Assembly: GCF_010672455.1 (NCBI RefSeq)
Contig: NZ_JAAHGO010000007.1
Coordinates: 72,697 to 133,704, forward strand
Length of the DNA stretch: 61,008 nt
Reading direction: 5' to 3'
Source: Okeania sp. SIO2C9
GTDB taxonomy: Bacteria > Cyanobacteriota > Cyanobacteriia > Cyanobacteriales > Microcoleaceae
This document shows, piece by piece, positions 18,103 to 27,237 of this stretch. The notes beneath the pieces were generated by a model, which did not search any database, had not been told where the DNA came from, and worked only from the letters and a program-made list of their open reading frames with translations. Position numbers and translations under genes: made by a program. Every line of letters starts with the position of its first letter. Positions within the stretch are counted from its first letter, which is position 1.

Positions 18103-19539
18103 TTAAATTTCTCCATTTGCTTTATCTAATTTTGTTGATACTTTCAAATTGTTCGAGTTGATTTTTAAATATTGTTTCCAGACAGGATTAAGAGTAAAGA
18201 CTGTCAAATTATTCTCTAATTTTCCATCTAATAATAACCGTTTTTTCAGGGATTGAATTACGTTTACAGATTCCTGAATAGATAGTTCTGATTTTCTAAT
18301 TATTTCTCCTATTGAAATTGGTTGGCTTTGATTGGCAATTTGCTCCATAACTCTGATTTCCATAGGAGATAAATGCTCAAATTGTTGTTCTAATTCCCCT
18401 TGTAATGCTTCTGGTAAAATTAGGGTTTGATATTCCATAAATTCTGCTACTTGACCGCTAAATAATTCTTGAATTGTTGTTGCTGCCATATCTAACCATC
18501 GGGGATTTCCTTGATAATTATTAATCAATTTTTCCCAAGATTCTCGATCTACTAATTGACGTTTTTGGCATATTTCATTTGCATAAGCTCCTAAACTTCC
18601 TAAAGTTAAGGTTCGTACTGGATAATTTTCTGTTTCTAGTTTGGTAATTTCTGGAATTTTTTCTCTACTTATTAATAGCAAACAACTCTGATGGGAGACT
18701 GTGACAAGTAGTTGAAAAAAATCCTGATAATCTTCATAACAAGATTTATATTGACCTGCCAGTTTTCCTGGAGCAAATAATTTTTGTACGTCATCAAAGA
18801 TGATGCAGCAACGATATTTTTCCAGGTATTTTTGTAGTTGTGATAATAGAGTTTCGATATTGTCTGAAGTTTCTGTTTCTGGTGCAAAAATTTGCAGGAG
18901 GTTAGTGAGAGTTGTGTTGAGGTTGGGAGAAAAGCGGAGGGTGCGATAAATGATGTAATTAAAATTAGTTTTGATTTGCTGGATTAATTGTAGAGAAAGA
19001 GTCGTTTTGCCAATACCACTTATTCCTAAAAGGGAGATAACACGGAGGCGATAACCTCTGGTTAAGCGTAAGCTATCGCTCACTATCCATTTTGACAAAG
19101 TAGAAAGTTCCTCTGTGCGGCCATAAAAGTTGATAATTTCTGGTGCTTTGTCTAGGTCGATAATATGTTGAGTTGGTGTTTGTTGAGAGTTGGTTTTTGT
19201 TGGGGAAGCGGGGGGGTTTGACGGACAGATATTAATGTTATTTGTTGCGTTATCTCTACAAAAAACGGGTACAAAATTGTGAATATTTGTATTTTCTAAT
19301 ATTGTTCTAAAATTTGCTTTAGTAATATTTTCACCCAGTATTTCCGATAAAATTTTCCATAATTTAGCACCGATATACCTAACATGAGTTTCGCTAGCGT
19401 AAGTTTCCTCAGCAATCTTTTTGTAAGTCTGACCTTCTAAAGTACGTTGCAATATAGTTTTTTGCAAGTAGTCTAAATTTTCTCCAGTATGGTCATAAAT
19501 TAGCTCTTCAGCCAACTTCAAAACTTCTTGAATATCCAT
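18103..19539 (-). CDS. STAND-type NB-ARC ATPase with vMAP N-terminal HTH domain
   Basis: From the ATG at 19539 the protein has 478 residues. Residues ~1-85 ('MDIQEVLKLAEELIYDHTGE', 'YKKIAEETYASETHVRYIGA') match the HTH-like N-terminal domain of vWA-MoxR-associated (vMAP) proteins. A linker with Cys/Thr/Pro follows, then an NB-ARC ATPase with P-loop 'GISGIGKTTL', Walker B-like 'YRCCIIFDDVQ' and a winged-helix end ('LSPMEIRVMEQIANQSQPIS'). It lacks a C-terminal sensor repeat. Such STAND proteins act as ligand-triggered switches, often in defence or cell death; the trigger is unknown. A dead paralogue lies at 37693-39234. Confidence 0.87.
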   Translation of the reverse strand: MDIQEVLKLAEELIYDHTGENLDYLQKTILQRTLEGQTYKKIAEETYASETHVRYIGAKLWKILSEILGENITKANFRTILENTNIHNFVPVFCRDNATNNINICPSNPPASPTKTNSQQTPTQHIIDLDKAPEIINFYGRTEELSTLSKWIVSDSLRLTRGYRLRVISLLGISGIGKTTLSLQLIQQIKTNFNYIIYRTLRFSPNLNTTLTNLLQIFAPETETSDNIETLLSQLQKYLEKYRCCIIFDDVQKLFAPGKLAGQYKSCYEDYQDFFQLLVTVSHQSCLLLISREKIPEITKLETENYPVRTLTLGSLGAYANEICQKRQLVDRESWEKLINNYQGNPRWLDMAATTIQELFSGQVAEFMEYQTLILPEALQGELEQQFEHLSPMEIRVMEQIANQSQPISIGEIIRKSELSIQESVNVIQSLKKRLLLDGKLENNLTVFTLNPVWKQYLKINSNNLKVSTKLDKANGEI

Positions 19540-19849
19540 AGATTGGGAAATGTTAGAGATTTTAGGGATTATAGCAAACAAATCCTACATTTCCTACAAA
19601 TCCTACAAACAAATTAAGGAAAAATTTCCAACAATTCCTACTGACAAAGCCAGAATTTATGAGGAAAGATGGATTATAGCAGTTCTTTAATCTACGAGGT
19701 AGAGTTTTAGATTCCCCCCGCCCCCTTAAAAAGGAAGCCAACAAAAAGCCCCCCTTTTTGAGAGGGATAGTCGGGGATCAGTAGATGTACCTCATACTTA
19801 TGAGAAAAGCTAAATTAGGACGTTAACAAATAGACTAATTCGGAACTTA

Positions 19850-20194: not shown

Positions 20195-21355
20195 ATGCTT
20201 GAATCTATAGATTTTTTTGATATTAGCGAAGAGCCAGAAACTCGTTACGCTCGTCACCACTTAATTGACTGGTGGAATCAGGAAAAACTCAAACAGGCCA
20301 GAGTATTGGTAGCAGGATGTGGTGCTTTAGGTAACGAAGTTCTCAAAAACCTAGCACTTGTTGGCGTTGGTAAAATCACTGTCATTGATTTTGACACAGT
20401 GTCAATTACTAACCTAACTCGCTCAGTCTTATTTCGAGAGTCAGATGTAGACTTACCAAAAGTAGAAGCAGCTCGTCAGCAACTGCTGGAAATTAATCCA
20501 GATATTTCTATTGAGGCAATTCAGGGAGACCTAGAATTTGACCTGGGGATTGGGAATGTTAGAGAACATGACATTATTATTGGTTGTCTTGATAGTGTTA
20601 ATGCACGGTGGGCAATTAATCAAGCAGCTTACTATGCAGGGATTCCCTGGGTTAATGGTGGTATAGGTGTTGCTCAAGGAGAAGTAAGTTTTTTCGATCC
20701 TAAAAGCGAAGCAGCTTGCTATGACTGTAGTATCAGTGACAAAATGTGGGAAAGGCGTAATCAGCGATATTCCTGTCAGGGTGTGAAACGCAATATTCCA
20801 GATAGGGCAATGCCGACAACAGCTCCTATTGCTTCTATTGTAGCAGCGATGGAAGTTCACCAAGCACTGTTGTATTTACATGGCAAAGCAGGAATGCTTA
20901 ATCCTGGTGAAAAAATTTTTCTGAGTTTAAATCCTTGGACATCCTTTAAAGTTCAAATTCAGCGTCAGGAATATTGTCCAGCTCACGATTTGCCCATAGA
21001 ACCAACTATTAGTATTAAGTACGAGGCAAATAAACCAGTTGTAGAAATTCTGAAACATCTAGAAAAATCAGGGTTTTCTGAACCAGTTTTGTGGCTGCGC
21101 AATGAAATTATTGGCAAGATGAAATGTGATGATTGTGGATATGAGGAACAGGTGAATCAACTTCTGCGACAATACCCAGAATCAAAACTTCCTTGCCCCA
21201 AGTGTGAAAATGAGGAAAGGGATTTTGAAGTGATTAGAAATTTTACTCTTCAGGATAAATCTGCCGAAACTCTGTTAGCAGATTTGTGTTTAACACAGAA
21301 CGAAATTCTACACTGTGATACTAGCAAAGGTAAAATAGCCATTCAATTTTGCTAA
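20195..21355 (+). CDS. E1-like ubiquitin-activating enzyme (ThiF/MoeB/UBA fold) with C-terminal zinc ribbon
   Basis: Should adenylate the C-terminal Gly of the downstream ubiquitin-like protein and pass it on as a thioester. The Rossmann ATP site is 'VAGCGALGNEVLKNLALVGV' (G41-x-G-x2-G46), with 'VIDFDTVSITNLTR' holding the usual Asp and Asn/Arg. C175-x2-C178 is the ThiF-type zinc pair, and 'RYSC' (C194) upstream of 'MPTTAPIASI' is the likely catalytic Cys by analogy with UBA3-type E1s. Beyond residue ~265 there is an extra domain with C311-x2-C314 and C334-x2-C337, a four-Cys zinc ribbon. First gene of the operon, 25 bp from the modifier. Confidence 0.92.
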   Translation: MLESIDFFDISEEPETRYARHHLIDWWNQEKLKQARVLVAGCGALGNEVLKNLALVGVGKITVIDFDTVSITNLTRSVLFRESDVDLPKVEAARQQLLEINPDISIEAIQGDLEFDLGIGNVREHDIIIGCLDSVNARWAINQAAYYAGIPWVNGGIGVAQGEVSFFDPKSEAACYDCSISDKMWERRNQRYSCQGVKRNIPDRAMPTTAPIASIVAAMEVHQALLYLHGKAGMLNPGEKIFLSLNPWTSFKVQIQRQEYCPAHDLPIEPTISIKYEANKPVVEILKHLEKSGFSEPVLWLRNEIIGKMKCDDCGYEEQVNQLLRQYPESKLPCPKCENEERDFEVIRNFTLQDKSAETLLADLCLTQNEILHCDTSKGKIAIQFC

Positions 21356-21380: not shown

Positions 21381-21635
21381 ATGAGTGATTCTGTATCTCT
21401 CGTTGTCCGTATGGCCGACGGTACTCGAAAAGCAGCTATTAGCTTACCCCCTACTCTAACAGTGGGACAGGTTTTGCAAAGCGCACAACAAAGGTGGAAT
21501 TTACCTTCAAATGCTGATTATGCAGCACGCTTGGAACGTACAGGTGAACAATTAGATAGTTCTGCAACTTTAAGCTCAGTGGGAATAGAGTCAGATGATG
21601 TAGTAGAAGTTTATCCTATTCTGGAGGCAGGTTAA
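21381..21635 (+). CDS. Ubiquitin-like beta-grasp modifier protein (YukD-like)
   Basis: An 84-residue protein with the pattern of a beta-grasp fold: strands at 'VSLVVRMADGTRKAAISL', a helix 'TVGQVLQSAQQRWNL', then 'YAARLERTGEQLDSSATLSS' and the final strand 'DDVVEVYPILEAG'. It resembles the YukD/EsaB and other prokaryotic ubiquitin-like families. It ends in a single Gly (...LEAG), not Gly-Gly, and has no extension to trim, so it may be conjugated directly. AGGAGG lies 8-9 bp before ATG. Only 2 bp separate it from the E2 gene, so the two are surely coupled. Confidence 0.88.
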   Translation: MSDSVSLVVRMADGTRKAAISLPPTLTVGQVLQSAQQRWNLPSNADYAARLERTGEQLDSSATLSSVGIESDDVVEVYPILEAG

Positions 21636-21637
21636 AA

Positions 21638-22132
21638 ATGAGTGTAAGAGAAAAACGATTGCGAAATGAGCATCAAGCATTATTAGAACTTGTTGGTAAT
21701 GCTGGCGGTTCTATAATAATTACTTCAGCTACTGGAAATCCTCCGTATCAATATGTGATTGACTATCGTTGTCGAGGCATAGAAAAATTACAGGGTAATA
21801 AACCTGTATTCCGCAGTAACCATAGCGTTGAAATTTCCCTTGGCAGTCAGTATCCAAGAGAACCACCCAGTGCTAAATTTTTGACTCCCATGTTCCACCC
21901 TAATGTTTATCTGAACAAAAATGTTTGTTTGGGTAGTTACTGGACAATGGCAGAAACAGTACCTCAACTGGTTATCAGAATTGGCAAGATTATTCAGTAT
22001 TCAAAAGATGTACTCAATTTGAACAGTCCAGCTAATTTGGAGGCAAAAAGTTGGGCGGCAAAAAATATGTCACTCTTTCCTGTTGACTCTCAAACCTTTA
22101 AGTCTCAGATTATCTGGGATGATATTAAGTAA
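21638..22132 (+). CDS. E2-like ubiquitin-conjugating enzyme (UBC fold)
   Basis: A 164-residue UBC-fold protein. 'RSNHSVEISLGSQYPREPPS' is the UBC beta-meander, H87-P-N89 is the HPN triad, and C97 in 'NKNVCLG' is the thioester Cys, eight residues after HPN as in true E2s. 'TVPQLVIRIGKIIQY' matches the helix after the active site. It ends 'QIIWDDIK', one of the tryptophan motifs shared across this operon. It should accept the modifier from the upstream E1. A 130-bp gap separates it from the JAB gene, so an internal promoter is possible. Confidence 0.93.
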   Translation: MSVREKRLRNEHQALLELVGNAGGSIIITSATGNPPYQYVIDYRCRGIEKLQGNKPVFRSNHSVEISLGSQYPREPPSAKFLTPMFHPNVYLNKNVCLGSYWTMAETVPQLVIRIGKIIQYSKDVLNLNSPANLEAKSWAAKNMSLFPVDSQTFKSQIIWDDIK

Positions 22133-22262
22133 TAATCAACACGATCTAGAACTGATTTGACCCAGGAAATCCTATACTTGATAGCTATCACTAATAGGAA
22201 AGTTAGGATTTCCCATCAACTCAGCATTTCGTTTATACACCACATCTATTGAGGAAATAGCC

Positions 22263-23663
22263 ATGTCAGATTTACATGATGTCGGTCCTGATAACTCATC
22301 ACCCAATCAAAATTCAGAACAAAACAAAATTGTCTGGGTTGAGAGTGAAGATGTTTACAAACCCATACCGAAATCAATCGAAGATTTTAAATCTGAACGA
22401 GATATTAGCAGTCGTACTCAAAAAGAAAAAGTATATATCACAAAAACTGCTGTTAAACATCTAACAGGACATTTGGGTTCAAACACAACGGTAGAGCAAG
22501 GTGGTATTCTTTTTGGTAATGCTTATGAAGATCCCCAGTATGGGATATATGTAGAGATTAAATCAGCAGTAGCAGCTCCATCAACTATTGGAACCGGAGC
22601 ACATCTAGAGTTCACATCTGATTCTTGGCAAGGAATTATGGATTATGCTAAAACTACCCATCCTCAAGAGAACATTGTAGGTTGGTATCACTCCCATCCA
22701 AATCTTGGAGTTTTCATGTCAGGTACAGATATGAATACACAAAGAGCATTTTTTCACCATCCTTGGTGTGTCTCAATTGTTTGCGATCCTGTACGGCGTA
22801 AAATTGGTTACTTCTTGGGCAAAAATGCAGAATCGGTTCAAGTAGTCGAGTTTGGTAGTGGAGATGCAGAAAATATTTTGTTCCCCGAACCAGCAGATAG
22901 AGGTCTAGATTCAGGGATTGAGTATTTACCAGAAGAGGAAACAAATAAGGATAAAGATATTGAGCAGAAAGAGCAATCTACAAACCAAAGAAATAGCAGT
23001 ACCTTTTTAGGGCTTTTATTGTTTGGTCTTTTGTTCATTTTGATGGCAGGAATGTTTTTAGACTTTGTGTTGAAAACGGCATTTAATAACGCTATCAGTC
23101 AATCTAATCCAAATATTTCTAACTCATCAGTTAATCAACCAGAAGCAGGTGGAAATTTGAGCAATTCTGACACTTCTACTGAAGGTAATTATGAGTTTAA
23201 CGCTGAGTACATAAGAATGCCTATTGCCACCTACAAAAAGTTAGAAGCTAATCAAAATGTTTTACACTCTCCAATTATCAAGCCACAAACTAATATTGGT
23301 GATGGGGACGAAATAATTGTGTTAGTTATTGAGCAAGATGTTAATTCTATAGCCAAAAATGTTACTCTAGAGATCGAAAGAGTCATTCTCAAGGATAAAG
23401 AAATTCAACTAATTGATTCTGTTAAAATTCCAGACAATATTCCAGATGAGATGATTTCTAAAACACTCGAACCAATAACAGAAAATTTGGGAAATCTAAG
23501 TAATGGCAAAGCAGTATTAGTTCTTATTTCCTCTAGTTATCTATCTAAAAATCCTTCTTCTCAAATAGTAGTACGCGACATAGTTAATATTCCACGTCGT
23601 CTTATCTACGAGGATAATGAAGGTAATGAAAATAGAATAAAAGTTAGGAAAATACTTAAATAA
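22263..23663 (+). CDS. Membrane-anchored JAB/MPN (JAMM) metalloprotease
   Basis: The JAMM zinc site is complete: E79 in 'VEQGGILFG', H143-S-H145-P and S153-x2-D156 ('HSHPNLGVFMSGTD'). Such enzymes cut isopeptide bonds or trim ubiquitin-like precursors; this modifier needs no visible trimming, so deconjugation is likelier. After the catalytic domain (about 55-200) comes an acidic linker, one membrane helix (247-270, 'LGLLLFGLLFILMAGMFLDF') and a ~190-residue extracytoplasmic or lumenal domain that I cannot assign. Near the N-terminus 'NKIVWVESED' carries the operon's tryptophan motif (W25). 466 residues, much longer than simple JAB proteins. Confidence 0.92.
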   Translation: MSDLHDVGPDNSSPNQNSEQNKIVWVESEDVYKPIPKSIEDFKSERDISSRTQKEKVYITKTAVKHLTGHLGSNTTVEQGGILFGNAYEDPQYGIYVEIKSAVAAPSTIGTGAHLEFTSDSWQGIMDYAKTTHPQENIVGWYHSHPNLGVFMSGTDMNTQRAFFHHPWCVSIVCDPVRRKIGYFLGKNAESVQVVEFGSGDAENILFPEPADRGLDSGIEYLPEEETNKDKDIEQKEQSTNQRNSSTFLGLLLFGLLFILMAGMFLDFVLKTAFNNAISQSNPNISNSSVNQPEAGGNLSNSDTSTEGNYEFNAEYIRMPIATYKKLEANQNVLHSPIIKPQTNIGDGDEIIVLVIEQDVNSIAKNVTLEIERVILKDKEIQLIDSVKIPDNIPDEMISKTLEPITENLGNLSNGKAVLVLISSSYLSKNPSSQIVVRDIVNIPRRLIYEDNEGNENRIKVRKILK

Positions 23664-23689
23664 AGACATTAGAGGATTGAATTTCTATC

Positions 23690-24103
23690 ATGGGATGTTT
23701 TTTATCTTTTATTTTTTTTCTTCTCGGATTTGCAAATTGGGGGTTTTGGGTATTAGCTGTTTTATTTCTGTTTATTGGTAGAGCTTCTAAACCTTCCTCT
23801 TCCTCCCAGACTGTTTCCAAGAACCCTGAGATAGTACCTGACGATCTAGATAACATCCTTCAATCTCTGAGTCAAGGAGAAATTAAAGATCCTGTAACTC
23901 AAGAAACATTTAGGTCAGGACAAAAAGTCTATCTCTGTCACACCCACCGACTCGCATACCACGAAGATAGTTGGCAGGAAATGGGATGTAGATGTATGGT
24001 GTGCGGACATAATAGAAATACTCGAGATTACATATTGCCAACTCCAATACAAATAACAGGAAACAAGACAAATGATTTAATTCAATGGGATGACCTGAAA
24101 TGA
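23690..24103 (+). CDS. Membrane-anchored RING-like zinc protein, E3 candidate 1
   Basis: 137 residues. Hydrophobic residues 3-30 form one or two membrane segments. A treble-clef/RING-like zinc domain follows: 'DPVTQETFRSGQKVYLC', C83, H85, H91, then C100-x-C102-x2-C105 in 'GCRCMVCGH'. The pattern fits prokaryotic RING-finger families known to sit in E1/E2 operons, but the first Cys pair is C-x-H. It ends 'LIQWDDLK', almost identical to the E2 C-terminus 'IIWDDIK'. It shares its zinc domain with the next gene ('RLAYHEDSW' in both). 26 bp after the JAB gene. E3 activity is inference. Confidence 0.8.
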   Translation: MGCFLSFIFFLLGFANWGFWVLAVLFLFIGRASKPSSSSQTVSKNPEIVPDDLDNILQSLSQGEIKDPVTQETFRSGQKVYLCHTHRLAYHEDSWQEMGCRCMVCGHNRNTRDYILPTPIQITGNKTNDLIQWDDLK

Positions 24104-24158
24104 TGAAATATAGATTATAACAAGTATGTAGATAGCTGAAAATCAAGCAAGACTTAAT

Positions 24159-24698
24159 ATGGAATGGTTAATTTTAATAGGGTTAGGAGTAATTGCTTCT
24201 ATCGGGGCATTTTTTTACCGTAGGTCTAGACTTCCTCCATCACCACCAAACAGAAACTCCCAAACATCAACTTCATATTCAAATAGGCACTCTTACCAAA
24301 GGGAGGCAAGGGGAATTCAATGGACAGATGTCAATCATCCTGAACAAACAAATCAAATTGGATGGGTGGAAGTTGATGTTAACACTTCTAGTAATAGTAA
24401 TGTTAATGAACCTGAAACTGTTACAGATGAAAACTTTTTCAATCAAAATGTGCCTGACGATCTAAACAACATATTAACAACTGTAATAGGATCTAACGAC
24501 CCTTATAGTCAGGAAGTTTTCAGTCCAGGAGAAACCGTTTATTTTTGTCGTCGCTGCCGACTAGCGTACCACGAAGATAGCTGGATAGAAATGGATTGTA
24601 AATGTAGAGATTGTGGGAGTGATACCCATACTAGACAACATACTTTGCCGCTCGCTCTTCAGTGGAATAACATTATCAGAAATCGGATAGAGCAATAA
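24159..24698 (+). CDS. Membrane-anchored RING-like zinc protein, E3 candidate 2
   Basis: 179 residues: one N-terminal membrane helix (2-20), a disordered Ser/Asn/Pro linker (25-100) and a C-terminal zinc domain paralogous to that of the preceding gene: 'DPYSQEVFSPGETVYFC', C130-x2-C133, H138, C147-x-C149-x2-C152. The linker has two tryptophan motifs, 'GIQWTDVN' (W55) and 'QIGWVEVD' (W69), and the C-terminus a third, 'ALQWNNII' (W169). The full C-x2-C here supports a real zinc site. The two copies probably arose by duplication within the operon and then diverged in the linker. Confidence 0.8.
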   Translation: MEWLILIGLGVIASIGAFFYRRSRLPPSPPNRNSQTSTSYSNRHSYQREARGIQWTDVNHPEQTNQIGWVEVDVNTSSNSNVNEPETVTDENFFNQNVPDDLNNILTTVIGSNDPYSQEVFSPGETVYFCRRCRLAYHEDSWIEMDCKCRDCGSDTHTRQHTLPLALQWNNIIRNRIEQ

Positions 24699-24777
24699 AA
24701 ATCTACAAGAGAAATATATTTTAACAAATTAGAGTCTCTGTTAAATTTACTAAATTGCGCACAAAGAGGTAGAAAAC

Positions 24778-25338
24778 ATGAAAGCATTGTACGGCATAGA
24801 ACCAGATTTATGTATTAGCAACCCTGATATCCTTATCTGGAATAATAAAGACGTAATTTTACCTAAGTATTTTTACAATCAGTTAGTCTATTTAACAGAA
24901 GGAGATTTTACCCAGGCGACACAAGCTGCTGAAAAAATTATCAACTCTTTAGAAAGACAAGAAATACCTAATCTACTAATATTCAAGACAATTTCTGAAG
25001 GAACCATATATTTCTATAACGAAGAAATTAATGCCAAACCAATTGGCGACTTAGATACTAGAAATCCTATAGATCGCTATATGCTTGGTTTAATAAATAT
25101 AGCTGAAATCCTAGAATGTCAGACAATATTTTTACCCTTATCTTCCGAAATAATTAATAAGTGTCGTGCTTTAAATATAGATGTTACAAATGCAGAAGAG
25201 TTTATGACTATAGATACTTCCTGGTTAGAACCGGAAATGTTAGTAGGTATTGAGGCAAAACTAGATCCACTATCACAAGTTCAATGGGAAGAAGTTCAAG
25301 CAGTAGAAGAGCTAGGAAACATTAATTGGGTAGAGTGA
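24778..25338 (+). CDS. Possible PIN-like protein, last gene of the ubiquitin-like operon
   Basis: 186 residues, no membrane segment. The order 'PDILIWNNKDVILPKYFYNQ', 'DLDTRNPIDRYMLGLINIAE' and 'TIFLPLSSEIINKCRALNID' resembles a PIN nuclease domain, with acidic residues near 10, 91-93 and 99. However, the first Asp of the usual 'DTN' is not clear, so the fold is a hypothesis and activity is uncertain. The tail carries two tryptophan motifs, 'SQVQWEEVQ' (W170) and the extreme C-terminus 'NINWVE' (W184). Same strand, 79 bp after the second RING-like gene. It could be effector, substrate or adaptor. Confidence 0.6.
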   Translation: MKALYGIEPDLCISNPDILIWNNKDVILPKYFYNQLVYLTEGDFTQATQAAEKIINSLERQEIPNLLIFKTISEGTIYFYNEEINAKPIGDLDTRNPIDRYMLGLINIAEILECQTIFLPLSSEIINKCRALNIDVTNAEEFMTIDTSWLEPEMLVGIEAKLDPLSQVQWEEVQAVEELGNINWVE

Positions 25339-25859: not shown

Positions 25860-26654
25860 TCGGGAAGGAGCAACTATAATCGCCGTGTCTTGTCCCCGTG
25901 TCCCCGTGTCGGCCTCAATCATCCCAGTATTCAGCAACGCCAAAATTATTAATACTGCTCTATAAAACTGATACAAAGCGTCACATAGCGTGACAACTTG
26001 AGGTTTACTTCCTGCTTCTTGTGAGGCCGTCGGCGGTTGCTCATCCACAGGCATTCACGGTCGAGCCGACCGCATCTCTCAAATTTATACTTGCGTTTAA
26101 ATCTCGATCTATTGACAACCCACACTTCTTGCAGTCATAAGTTCTCAGATGCAAGGCCATGTCTTGAACATGACCACAGTTAGAACAAGTCTTTGATGAT
26201 GGAAAGAATCTATCTACTACTACTAATTCACTTCCGTACCATTGACACTTGTATTTAAGCTGTCTGGTGAAATTCATAAAATCACTATCTGCTAACTGAT
26301 TTTAGCTAGCCTATGGTTGGCTAGCATTCCAGACACATTGTCATACTTCAATGACAACACTGCCGTGGTTCAAAGCTTGCGTAAGTTGTCAGTTTATGAA
26401 GTGCATCTTTGCGGATATTAGCTACTCGTCTATGCTGCTTGGCTAACTTGATTACAGCTTTGTACCAATTATTTGAATACTTGACTTTTCTACTAATTTG
26501 ACGTTGCAACTTAGTCAGTTTTTTCTCAGCTTTTCTATATGGTTTGATACTAGGAAACACCTTGCCATCACTTAAAGTAGCTAAGGTTTTTACACCTAAA
26601 TCTACACCTACTACATTAGTTTTTTTGGGTATGGTGTGAGGATGAAATTCATTC

Positions 26655-26682
26655 GTAGGGGCGAACGGCCGTTCGCCCCTAC
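26655..26682. repeat. Perfect 28-bp palindrome in the tnpB relic
   Basis: GTAGGGGCGAACGG and its exact reverse complement. The tnpB frame stays open across it ('YISCRGERPFAPTNEFH'). It differs from the 10801 copy by one compensating base pair (T/C in each arm), so the hairpin is kept. Confidence 0.95.
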
Positions 26683-26831
26683 AGCTAATATACCAATCTC
26701 CTGCTTGCCTGCTAATAGTTATTTTTTTTACTGTTGCCTCACTCTTGTTCATAAGTTTTGACAATACCAATAAAAGGTAACTTGTGACTCCATCCGTTTA
26801 ACTCTATTGGCTTTCCACAATTATCAATTGT

Positions 26832-27092
26832 GTTTGCGAAGCATTCCGAAGGAAAAGAATCAGATTTACCCTTCTTCTTAAATTTTGGGCGTTTACCCAA
26901 CCCTTGTTTGCGAAGCATTCCGAAGGAAAAGAACCTCTTAAATGCTTCACCTAAGTTGATGTTTGCGCAGCATTCCGTAGGAAAAGCATATTGATAAACT
27001 CTAGACGACAAGTTTTTCATCCAGGGATAAAGAGGTTTTGTGTGATTAGTAAAAACAACTCTTAGCTTACGTTTGCGCAGCATTCCGCAGGA
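26832..27092 (-). repeat. Four dispersed copies of a 24-nt double-hairpin unit
   Basis: Copies at 26832-26855, 26906-26929, 26961-26984 and 27071-27092 (last shortened). In the coding direction each reads TTTCC-TTC-GGAA-TGC-TTC-GCA-AAC with variants TAC/TGC in the loops: two adjacent mini-hairpins. At 24 nt each copy adds eight codons and leaves the frame intact (e.g. 'FPSECFAN' or 'FGMLRKQ' depending on frame). Confidence 0.85.
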
Positions 27093-27237
27093 AGCATTGG
27101 GTTTGTAACCATCAATGTATGCAGCATTCCACAAACCTTTTACCCCAGTTATAGCACCATCGAGAGTAGCCCGCGTGTTGAGCCATCAGAGTTTTCTGTT
27201 TATTATTAAGTTTGAGCTTTGTTCTAATGGATTTCAT

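What the first reader, a model, noticed from the sequence alone, without database searches (positions are those of the whole stretch)
22103..25338. A shared tryptophan motif in five proteins of the ubiquitin-like operon
Eight copies of [ILV]-x-W-[DEVTN]-[DEN]-[ILVS] occur: E2 C-terminus 'IIWDDIK'; JAB N-terminus 'KIVWVESED'; RING-1 C-terminus 'IQWDDLK'; RING-2 'GIQWTDVN', 'IGWVEVD', 'LQWNNII'; PIN-like 'VQWEEVQ' and C-terminal 'INWVE'. (In the last the residue after E is the terminus.) Most are at termini or in low-complexity linkers, and the host domains are otherwise unrelated except for the two RING-like proteins. This is what a docking motif read by one partner (E1 zinc ribbon, Ubl or E2) would look like, or a tag for the same ligase. 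I know no description of it.
Basis: partly seen in the sequence, partly recalled or inferred. Interest (0 to 1): 0.85.

Follow-up and report, generated by a model that had tools for sequence, protein, structure and literature searches.

The report
Ubiquitin-reading tags in cyanobacterial operon
Several proteins encoded by a bacterial ubiquitin-like operon carry the same short tryptophan-centred tag, and sequence comparison plus one structure prediction suggest the operon's own ubiquitin-like protein reads that tag, much as SUMO and Atg8 read short motifs in our cells.

Summary
All eight copies are present. In 15 window-like (type A) cyanobacterial operons the motif recurs at the same places: E2 tail 15 of 15, JAB N-terminal arm 13 of 13, two copies in the PIN-like protein 10 of 10, RING-like proteins 9 of 13 operons, 11 with a C-terminal F form. 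It is rare in flanking genes. The tag is rewritten as a set: a related operon type uses LNWRD in E2, JAB, a TraG-like ATPase, a nuclease-like and a RING-like protein; three more operons, two of them consistently, use a basic form. Chloroflexi have acidic GINIL-type E2 ends and two similar peptides in a dynamin-like protein. Across 12-13 Ubl clades E2-tail charge mirrors Ubl charge (Spearman -0.84 to -0.88); E1 and the E2 core do not follow. AlphaFold2 orders the E2-tail tag as a strand (block pLDDT 88) when the Ubl is in the chain; without it the tail stays at 66, no strand. Best reading: an LIR/SIM-like motif read by the operon's Ubl through strand addition. Binding is untested.

The parts
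20195..21355 (+).
   Evidence: Pfam ThiF 1.5e-56
21381..21635 (+). Ubiquitin-like protein (Ubl, 84 aa, ends LEAG); proposed reader of the motif
   Evidence: Pfam Rad60-SLD 3.6e-5, just over its cut-off; charge mirroring; model of a relative
21414..21434 (+). Ubl residues 12-18 ADGTRKA (beta1-beta2 turn into beta2), the stretch whose charge best mirrors the E2 tail
   Evidence: Spearman -0.85 over 12 clades, best of 78 windows
21450..21497 (+). Ubl residues 24-39 (approach to and length of alpha1, ending in RW), further windows whose charge mirrors the E2 tail
   Evidence: windows at -0.80 and -0.81
21638..22132 (+). E2 (ubiquitin-conjugating fold, Cys in VCLG)
   Evidence: Pfam UQ_con 5.7e-12; a profile of 26 relatives finds UBE2B/UBE2A/RAD6 first among solved sequences
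22109..22126 (+). motif copy 1, E2 C-terminus IIWDDI
   Evidence: Trp invariant in the 26 E2s aligned (L197's E2, not in that set, lacks it)
22263..23663 (+). JAB/JAMM deconjugase with a hydrophobic, possibly membrane-spanning segment
   Evidence: Pfam JAB 8.6e-11; RPN11 closest among solved sequences; segment read from the sequence
22329..22346 (+). motif copy 2, JAB N-terminal arm IVWVES
   Evidence: 13 of 13 type-A JABs have an N-terminal copy
23690..24103 (+). RING-like zinc protein 1 with an N-terminal hydrophobic segment
   Evidence: Cys/His ligands conserved; weak Prok-RING_1 matches of relatives
24080..24097 (+). motif copy 3, RING-1 C-terminus IQWDDL
   Evidence: five other type-A operons have a C-terminal F form in a RING-like protein
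24159..24698 (+). RING-like zinc protein 2 with an N-terminal hydrophobic segment
24315..24332 (+). motif copy 4, IQWTDV in the linker of RING-2
24357..24374 (+). motif copy 5, IGWVEV in the linker of RING-2
24657..24674 (+). motif copy 6, LQWNNI near the C-terminus of RING-2
24778..25338 (+). 'PIN-like' protein (fold not confirmed); fused to a protein kinase in L056
25279..25296 (+). motif copy 7, VQWEEV, first of the tandem pair
25321..25335 (+). motif copy 8, INWVE at the C-terminus, second of the tandem pair (I and W invariant in 9 of 9 aligned)

Best explanation
The repeated peptide is a short linear motif that docks on the operon's own ubiquitin-like protein. Proposed mechanism: the peptide adds as a beta strand to the exposed edge of the Ubl sheet, most likely beta2, with its aromatic and hydrophobic side chains in the groove between beta2 and alpha1 and its charged residues facing oppositely charged Ubl residues. 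On E2 it would hold a donor or acceptor Ubl near the active site; on JAB it would hold the Ubl to be cut; on the RING-like proteins, which have hydrophobic N-termini, it would gather Ubl or E2~Ubl at the membrane; the repeated copies on the PIN-like/kinase, TraG-like ATPase, nuclease-like and dynamin-like proteins would recruit these effectors to Ubl-modified targets. Shown: the motif, its sharing, its rewriting as a set in related operons, the charge mirroring with Ubl, and ordering of one copy in a predicted model.
For: (1) Same places in 15 type-A operons ([ILVMF]xW at the expected place): E2 15 of 15, JAB 13 of 13, PIN-like 10 of 10 with two copies each; RING-like, with [ILV]xWx[DENQ], 9 of 13 operons, 11 of 13 counting a C-terminal F form. 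Trp invariant in 26 E2s chosen from motif-bearing operons. (2) Rewritten as a set: type B (7 operons) has a basic residue at +1 in 50 of 59 copies over E2, JAB, ATPase, nuclease-like and RING-like; type B' (3 operons) is basic at +2 in 11 of 15; type A acidic at +2 in 59 of 70. (3) E2-tail charge against Ubl net charge: -0.88 over 12 clades (81 operons; 0 of 2,000 permutations as low), -0.86 without 13 operons, -0.84 with three more added; in the same 50% clades E2 core 0.06 to 0.18, E1 0.01 to 0.32. Windows at -0.6 or below: Ubl 13 of 78, E1 7 of 352, E2 core 3 of 127. (4) AlphaFold2, Prochloron Ubl plus E2: tail motif a strand at residues 254-257, last block pLDDT 88 after a linker block of 60; E2 alone: last two blocks 66, no strand. 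(5) F replaces W at some RING-1 C-termini, as LIR motifs allow (PMC7615515, passages).
Against: No binding data. The model is one sequence; Ubl and E2 were in one chain, read through one stop, so the motif was tethered to the Ubl; which strand it pairs with was not shown; no peptide or unrelated-Ubl control could be run (2 of 2 jobs used). Charge mirroring rests on 7 to 18 clades and weakens to -0.59 to -0.67 at the finest split. The stretch I had picked beforehand as beta2 (Ubl residues 13-24) gives only -0.54, p 0.07; the better windows were found by scanning. One E1 window reaches -0.88. The +3 hydrophobic residue is frequent in type A (43 of 70) but not in B (7 of 59) or B' (1 of 15). L081 and L085 have no copy in their RING-like protein. 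L197 is mixed (WRD in JAB, basic in ATPase and nuclease-like, no W in the E2 tail). In Chloroflexi 0 of 43 JABs and 0 of 27 RING-like proteins carry the E2-tail pattern, and many planctomycete E2s have no such tail. A generic E2-tail similarity test was near background.
Confidence: 0.75

Rival explanations
1. The motif is read by E1 (for example its C-terminal zinc-ribbon-like part), gathering all pathway proteins on E1.
Against: E1 net charge does not follow the motif charge (-0.26 to 0.32); only 7 of 352 E1 windows reach -0.6; JAB, nuclease-like and dynamin-like proteins have no obvious need for E1 (inference).
Confidence: 0.08
2. The motif is read by another operon protein (E2, JAB or a RING-like domain) or packs on its own carrier.
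For: The same proteins travel together.
Against: E2 alone leaves its tail unordered in the model; E2 core charge does not follow; RING-like or PIN-like genes were not found in the fetched stretch of some motif-bearing operons, such as L068 and L086.
Confidence: 0.07
3. The peptide is a shared tag acted on by an enzyme (preferred modification or degradation signal of the pathway) and not a docking site.
For: Many copies lie at chain ends (24 of 70 type-A copies within 12 residues of the C-terminus).
Against: I see no conserved acceptor residue in the listed copies; charge mirroring with Ubl and the strand seen in the model are not predicted by this idea.
Confidence: 0.06
4. Chance or composition: tryptophan in acidic linkers looks alike.
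Against: Shuffles and flanking genes; near-constant placement and set-wise rewriting.
Confidence: 0.01

Closest known systems
LIR/AIM motifs of the Atg8/LC3 family
   Same: Aromatic (W/F/Y) at 0, hydrophobic at +3 and acids nearby in the window lineage; beta-strand docking predicted; carried by the pathway's own E2 (human ATG3 core WVDT), protease (C-terminal LIR of Atg4B) and effectors (PMC7615515, passages).
   Different: The modelled Ubl has no N-terminal helical arm; types B and B' lack the +3 hydrophobic residue and B' is basic; bacterial; no binding shown.
SUMO-interacting motifs (SIM)
   Same: Predicted strand on a Ubl matching Rad60-SLD (SUMO-like); SUMO binds SIMs between beta2 and alpha1, and SIMs lie in flexible extensions of SAE2 and SENPs (PMC12687455, passages); Chloroflexi ends such as EADDIGINIL look SIM-like (SIM consensus recalled).
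   Different: The cyanobacterial core is W-centred, without the hydrophobic run of SIMs (recalled).
Bil and Bub bacterial ubiquitin-like operons
   Same: Bil: E1, E2, Ubl and JAB in one bacterial operon (PMC11354881, passages). Bub: named as a ubiquitination-like operon family (PMC13373217, passages); its gene content was not given in what I saw.
   Different: The passages seen mention no such motif. The main Bub papers (Gong 2025, Ye 2026) are not held.
Prokaryotic E1-E2-JAB-Ubl neighbourhoods of Iyer et al. 2006
   Same: The general kind of gene neighbourhood, including cyanobacterial cases (PMC1779556, passages).
   Different: Passages seen mention no shared terminal tryptophan motif; the conserved Arg and Trp named there belong to an alpha+beta domain at the N-terminus of one JAB type.

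Membership tests
LIR/AIM | aromatic residue (W/F/Y) at position 0 | tested here: met
   W in the window copies; F at six RING-like C-termini in five other operons (L076, L083 twice, L183, L184, L186)
LIR/AIM | L/I/V at +3 | tested here: inconclusive
   hydrophobic (ILVMFY) in 43 of 70 type-A, 7 of 59 type-B, 1 of 15 type-B' copies
LIR/AIM | acidic residues next to the core | tested here: inconclusive
   +2 acidic in 59 of 70 type-A and 45 of 59 type-B copies, basic in 11 of 15 type-B' copies
LIR/AIM | reader is an Atg8-family Ubl with an N-terminal helical arm | tested here: not met
   Prochloron Ubl model starts with a strand at residue 7, no N-terminal helix
SIM | hydrophobic core such as [VIL]x[VIL][VIL] beside acids (consensus recalled) | tested here: not met
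   not in the window copies; SIM-like ends in 21 of 24 Chloroflexi E2s
SIM / LIR | peptide docks as a strand on the Ubl beta2 edge | tested here: inconclusive
   strand forms only with Ubl in the chain, partner strand not shown
SIM / LIR | measured binding to the Ubl | not testable with these tools
   needs an experiment
Bil operon | BilA-BilD protein matches | tested here: not met
Bub operon | matches to Bub proteins | not tested
   no models named Bub came up and the papers are not held
RING finger | cross-brace zinc ligands and a curated family match | tested here: not met
   some Cys/His ligands conserved but Pfam matches below cut-off; called RING-like only
PIN domain | family match | tested here: not met
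   no Pfam match over the PIN-like part and no credible solved-structure match

The most novel reading that the evidence does not exclude
Bacterial ubiquitin-like operons have their own motif-and-groove code: each Ubl reads a lineage-specific peptide worn by its E2, deconjugase, ligase-like and effector proteins, and motif and groove change together. The SIM/LIR way of reading ubiquitin-like proteins would then be older than eukaryotes or have arisen at least twice, and the peptide becomes a search key for unknown effectors (TraG-like ATPase, nuclease-like, dynamin-like, kinase) of these pathways.
Probability: 0.6. Interest if true: 0.92.

Novelty: new variant of a known kind. Interest (0 to 1): 0.87.

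Why it matters
A review in the held library says that SUMO's SIM groove and similar grooves of ATG8/LC3, UFM1 and ATG12 may, some or all, come from a common ancestor (PMC12687455, passages). A bacterial Ubl that reads a peptide in the same way, inside operons with an E2 close to UBE2A/RAD6 and a JAB close to RPN11, would make that question directly testable. It would also give a way to find effectors of bacterial ubiquitin-like pathways by their peptide, and natural charge-swapped pairs (types A and B') for specificity-swap tests.

Tried and rejected
An unbiased 7-mer comparison of E2 tails with other ORFs was near background (p 0.01 or less: JAB 3 of 94, R1 2 of 45, R2 2 of 24, PIN 1 of 11, other ORFs 11 of 948). 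A DNA pattern for C-terminal copies in the own genome gave 89 matches against 52 for the reversed control; it was drawn too wide (it lets Lys in). Besides E2 and RING-1 I picked eight matches by eye, dropping the rest; of these eight only one ended an ORF of 20 aa or more, a 25-aa one. Not all 89 were checked.

Rows dropped. Of 118 loci with possible operons, the charge analysis kept 81; 15 were duplicates or near copies (for example L076/L185, L084/L188, L085/L199), and 22 more fell out, 18 because no Ubl or no E2 was found and L072, L130, L135, L149 because of fused or over-long ORFs. Adding L130, L135 and L149 back gave -0.84 over 13 clades, permutation p 0.0005. One search also left out 13 planctomycete operons by my choice; with them back the value was -0.88.

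Counts mended. In one search missing residues were counted as acidic; one search corrects this. One search's RING rule gave 8 of 13, with L186 counted only through a hydrophobic segment and some other hydrophobic-segment hits among its 19 copies; one search is the better count. The type-B RING count (7 copies) also holds one such hit (L190).

E1 as reader was considered and is less likely. Foldseek's 50 listed matches were nearly all E2 enzymes, which says nothing about the motif. PHROGs gave no match.
Full report
SETTING. The window is a stretch of contig C285 of a 10.9-Mb genome; the closest named relatives found are Okeania and Trichodesmium, so it is probably an Okeania or close to it. The operon on the + strand is E1-Ubl-E2-JAB-RING1-RING2-PIN-like. 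E1 is a ThiF-family protein, the Ubl just passes the Rad60-SLD cut-off, E2 matches UQ_con. Among solved sequences a profile of the E2s finds UBE2B/UBE2A/RAD6 first, and the JAB part finds RPN11. The RING-like proteins share Cys/His ligands but have only sub-threshold family matches. The PIN assignment found no support.

OBSERVATION. All eight copies are there. Shuffles never gave more than 3 (mean 0.09, 5,000 shuffles), and 172 background ORFs of the same genome gave 2 in 58,453 aa. Because the pattern was drawn from these copies, I tested it elsewhere.

ORTHOLOGUES. The window's E2 finds a relative in 14 of 386 genomes of the phylum, the own genome counted; a profile of seven E2s finds one in 30 of 388 of the order, likewise. 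A scan of named genomes kept the best 80 of 117 loci, from Cyanobacteria, Chloroflexi, Planctomycetes and others. By position, in 15 type-A operons (two of them, L082 and L189, without a JAB in the fetched stretch): E2 tail 15 of 15, JAB N-terminal arm 13 of 13, PIN-like pair 10 of 10, RING-like proteins 9 of 13 operons, or 11 of 13 if a C-terminal F form is counted; L081 and L085 have none (the two longest of the nine, L057 and L077, have more room for chance). The tail tryptophan is invariant in 26 E2s that I chose from motif-bearing operons, alongside the catalytic cysteine, while the linker before it varies; L197's E2, not in that set, lacks it. Where the PIN-like protein is fused to a protein kinase (L056) the pair sits at the end of the fusion; where a separate kinase gene follows (L184), it has its own pair. 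That is hard to explain unless the peptide itself is what matters.

REWRITING AS A SET. A related operon type (B; seven operons) has E1-Ubl-E2-JAB, then a TraG/VirD4-like ATPase (L190: T4SS-DNA_transf 4.5e-17), a nuclease-like protein (my reading of the sequence; no family match for L190's, a sub-threshold DUF234 match for L071's) and in some a RING-like protein. Its motif is of the LNWRD kind in all of these: E2 often ends in KLNWR, JAB begins near KLQWRDSED, the ATPase has 3 to 5 copies by my rule, some ending the chain as in PKLNWRD. The residue at +1 is basic in 50 of 59 copies. In type B' (three operons) the motif is basic: E2 KVKWHKKQ and KVKWGKKT, JAB VRWHKR and IRWHKR, ATPase IRWRR, nuclease-like VKWRKQ and IKWGKQ; L197 is mixed. 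In Chloroflexi 21 of 24 E2s end in an acidic GINIL-type peptide; outside E2 the pattern is in 6 of 230 other ORFs, five of them in one class of 864-903 aa, in 1 of 19 E1s, and in 0 of 43 JABs, 0 of 27 RING-like and 0 of 24 Ubls. By eye all seven proteins of that size class in these loci show two such peptides; the two that were scanned match Dynamin_N (1.5e-12 and 1.8e-12). In some planctomycetes E2 ends in EITFL-like and JAB begins with DEMSFGEL-like peptides; this is suggestive only.

WHO READS IT. For 81 operons I compared the net charge of the last 12 residues of E2 with that of Ubl, E1 and the E2 core, averaged over Ubl clades (50% identity). Ubl: -0.88 (12 clades, 0 of 2,000 permutations as low); -0.86 with 13 planctomycete operons left out; -0.84 with three more operons added; E1 0.01 to 0.32; E2 core 0.06 to 0.18. 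With finer clades it is -0.59 to -0.67. The stretch I had picked beforehand as beta2 (residues 13-24) gave only -0.54, p 0.07. By scanning, the strongest Ubl windows are residues 12-18 (ADGTRKA, -0.85), 33-39 (QSAQQRW, -0.81) and 24-30 (-0.80); one E1 window reaches -0.88, but 13 of 78 Ubl windows are at -0.6 or below against 7 of 352 in E1 and 3 of 127 in the E2 core. The Prochloron Ubl has three more residues at its start, so these windows fall at about 15-21, 36-42 and 27-33 of the model, whose beta1, beta2 and alpha1 are 7-14, 20-26 and 31-41: the turn into beta2 and both ends of alpha1, that is, around the beta2/alpha1 groove. The plainest swaps: type A has TRKA and acidic motifs, type B' has KEEEA or KDGEEA and basic motifs; one Phycisphaerae group has NQEFDVELPDD and basic E2 tails such as RISIRPKPKK.

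STRUCTURE PREDICTION. In locus L086 (Prochloron) the Ubl and E2 genes are in the same frame with one stop between. Reading that stop as glycine gave one chain. AlphaFold2 with 48 aligned rows placed a strand at residues 254-257, inside the tail motif RINWHDLA, with a mean pLDDT of 88 for the last block after a linker block of 60. E2 alone with 26 rows left the tail at 66 with no strand. As the E2 part is the same, the new strand most likely pairs with the Ubl; the free edges of a beta-grasp sheet are beta2 and the far edge (general knowledge), and the charge data favour beta2.

COMPARISON. The nearest known systems are LIR/AIM and SIM motifs. A review of Atg8 proteins gives the LIR core as W/F/Y-x-x-L/I/V, docked as a strand beside beta2, with LIRs in human ATG3 (WVDT) and at the C-terminus of Atg4B (PMC7615515, passages). 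A review of SUMO places the SIM groove between beta2 and alpha1 and notes similar grooves in ATG8/LC3, UFM1 and ATG12 (PMC12687455, passages). The window motif works like these but is not a member of either: the modelled Ubl has no Atg8 arm, and the core is not a SIM run. Related bacterial operons are described or named in PMC1779556, PMC11354881 and PMC13373217 (passages only). My searches (listings and starts of abstracts) and these passages showed no description of such a motif, but the main Bub papers are not held and most subscription papers are missing, so I cannot say it is unpublished.

VERDICT. Confidence 0.75 for the Ubl as reader; function downstream is inference.

Noticed in passing
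L190:9314-11044, L191:3132-4910, L193:4612-6387, L196:10821-12629: A TraG/VirD4-like coupling ATPase recurs in a cyanobacterial ubiquitin-like operon type and carries 3-5 motif copies near its C-terminus (Pfam run on L190's only); other conjugation genes were not searched for.
   Followed up: partly
L093:392-2986, L101:2255-4936 and five ORFs of similar size: A dynamin-like GTPase (two of seven scanned) lies near Chloroflexi E2/Ubl operons and carries two SIM-like peptides resembling the E2 C-terminus.
   Followed up: partly
L190, L192, L196: Some operons encode two Ubl genes in a row, and L196 also two E2 genes.
   Followed up: no
window 18103-19581 (-): An NB-ARC/AAA STAND-like ATPase gene lies just upstream on the opposite strand.
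   Followed up: no
window 26041-27134 (-): Pieces of a TnpB-like transposon protein split over several frames lie downstream of the operon (my reading of the ORF list).
   Followed up: no
L054, L055: JAB is split into two ORFs in these two close relatives, while the part with the motif and the JAB domain stays open.
   Followed up: no
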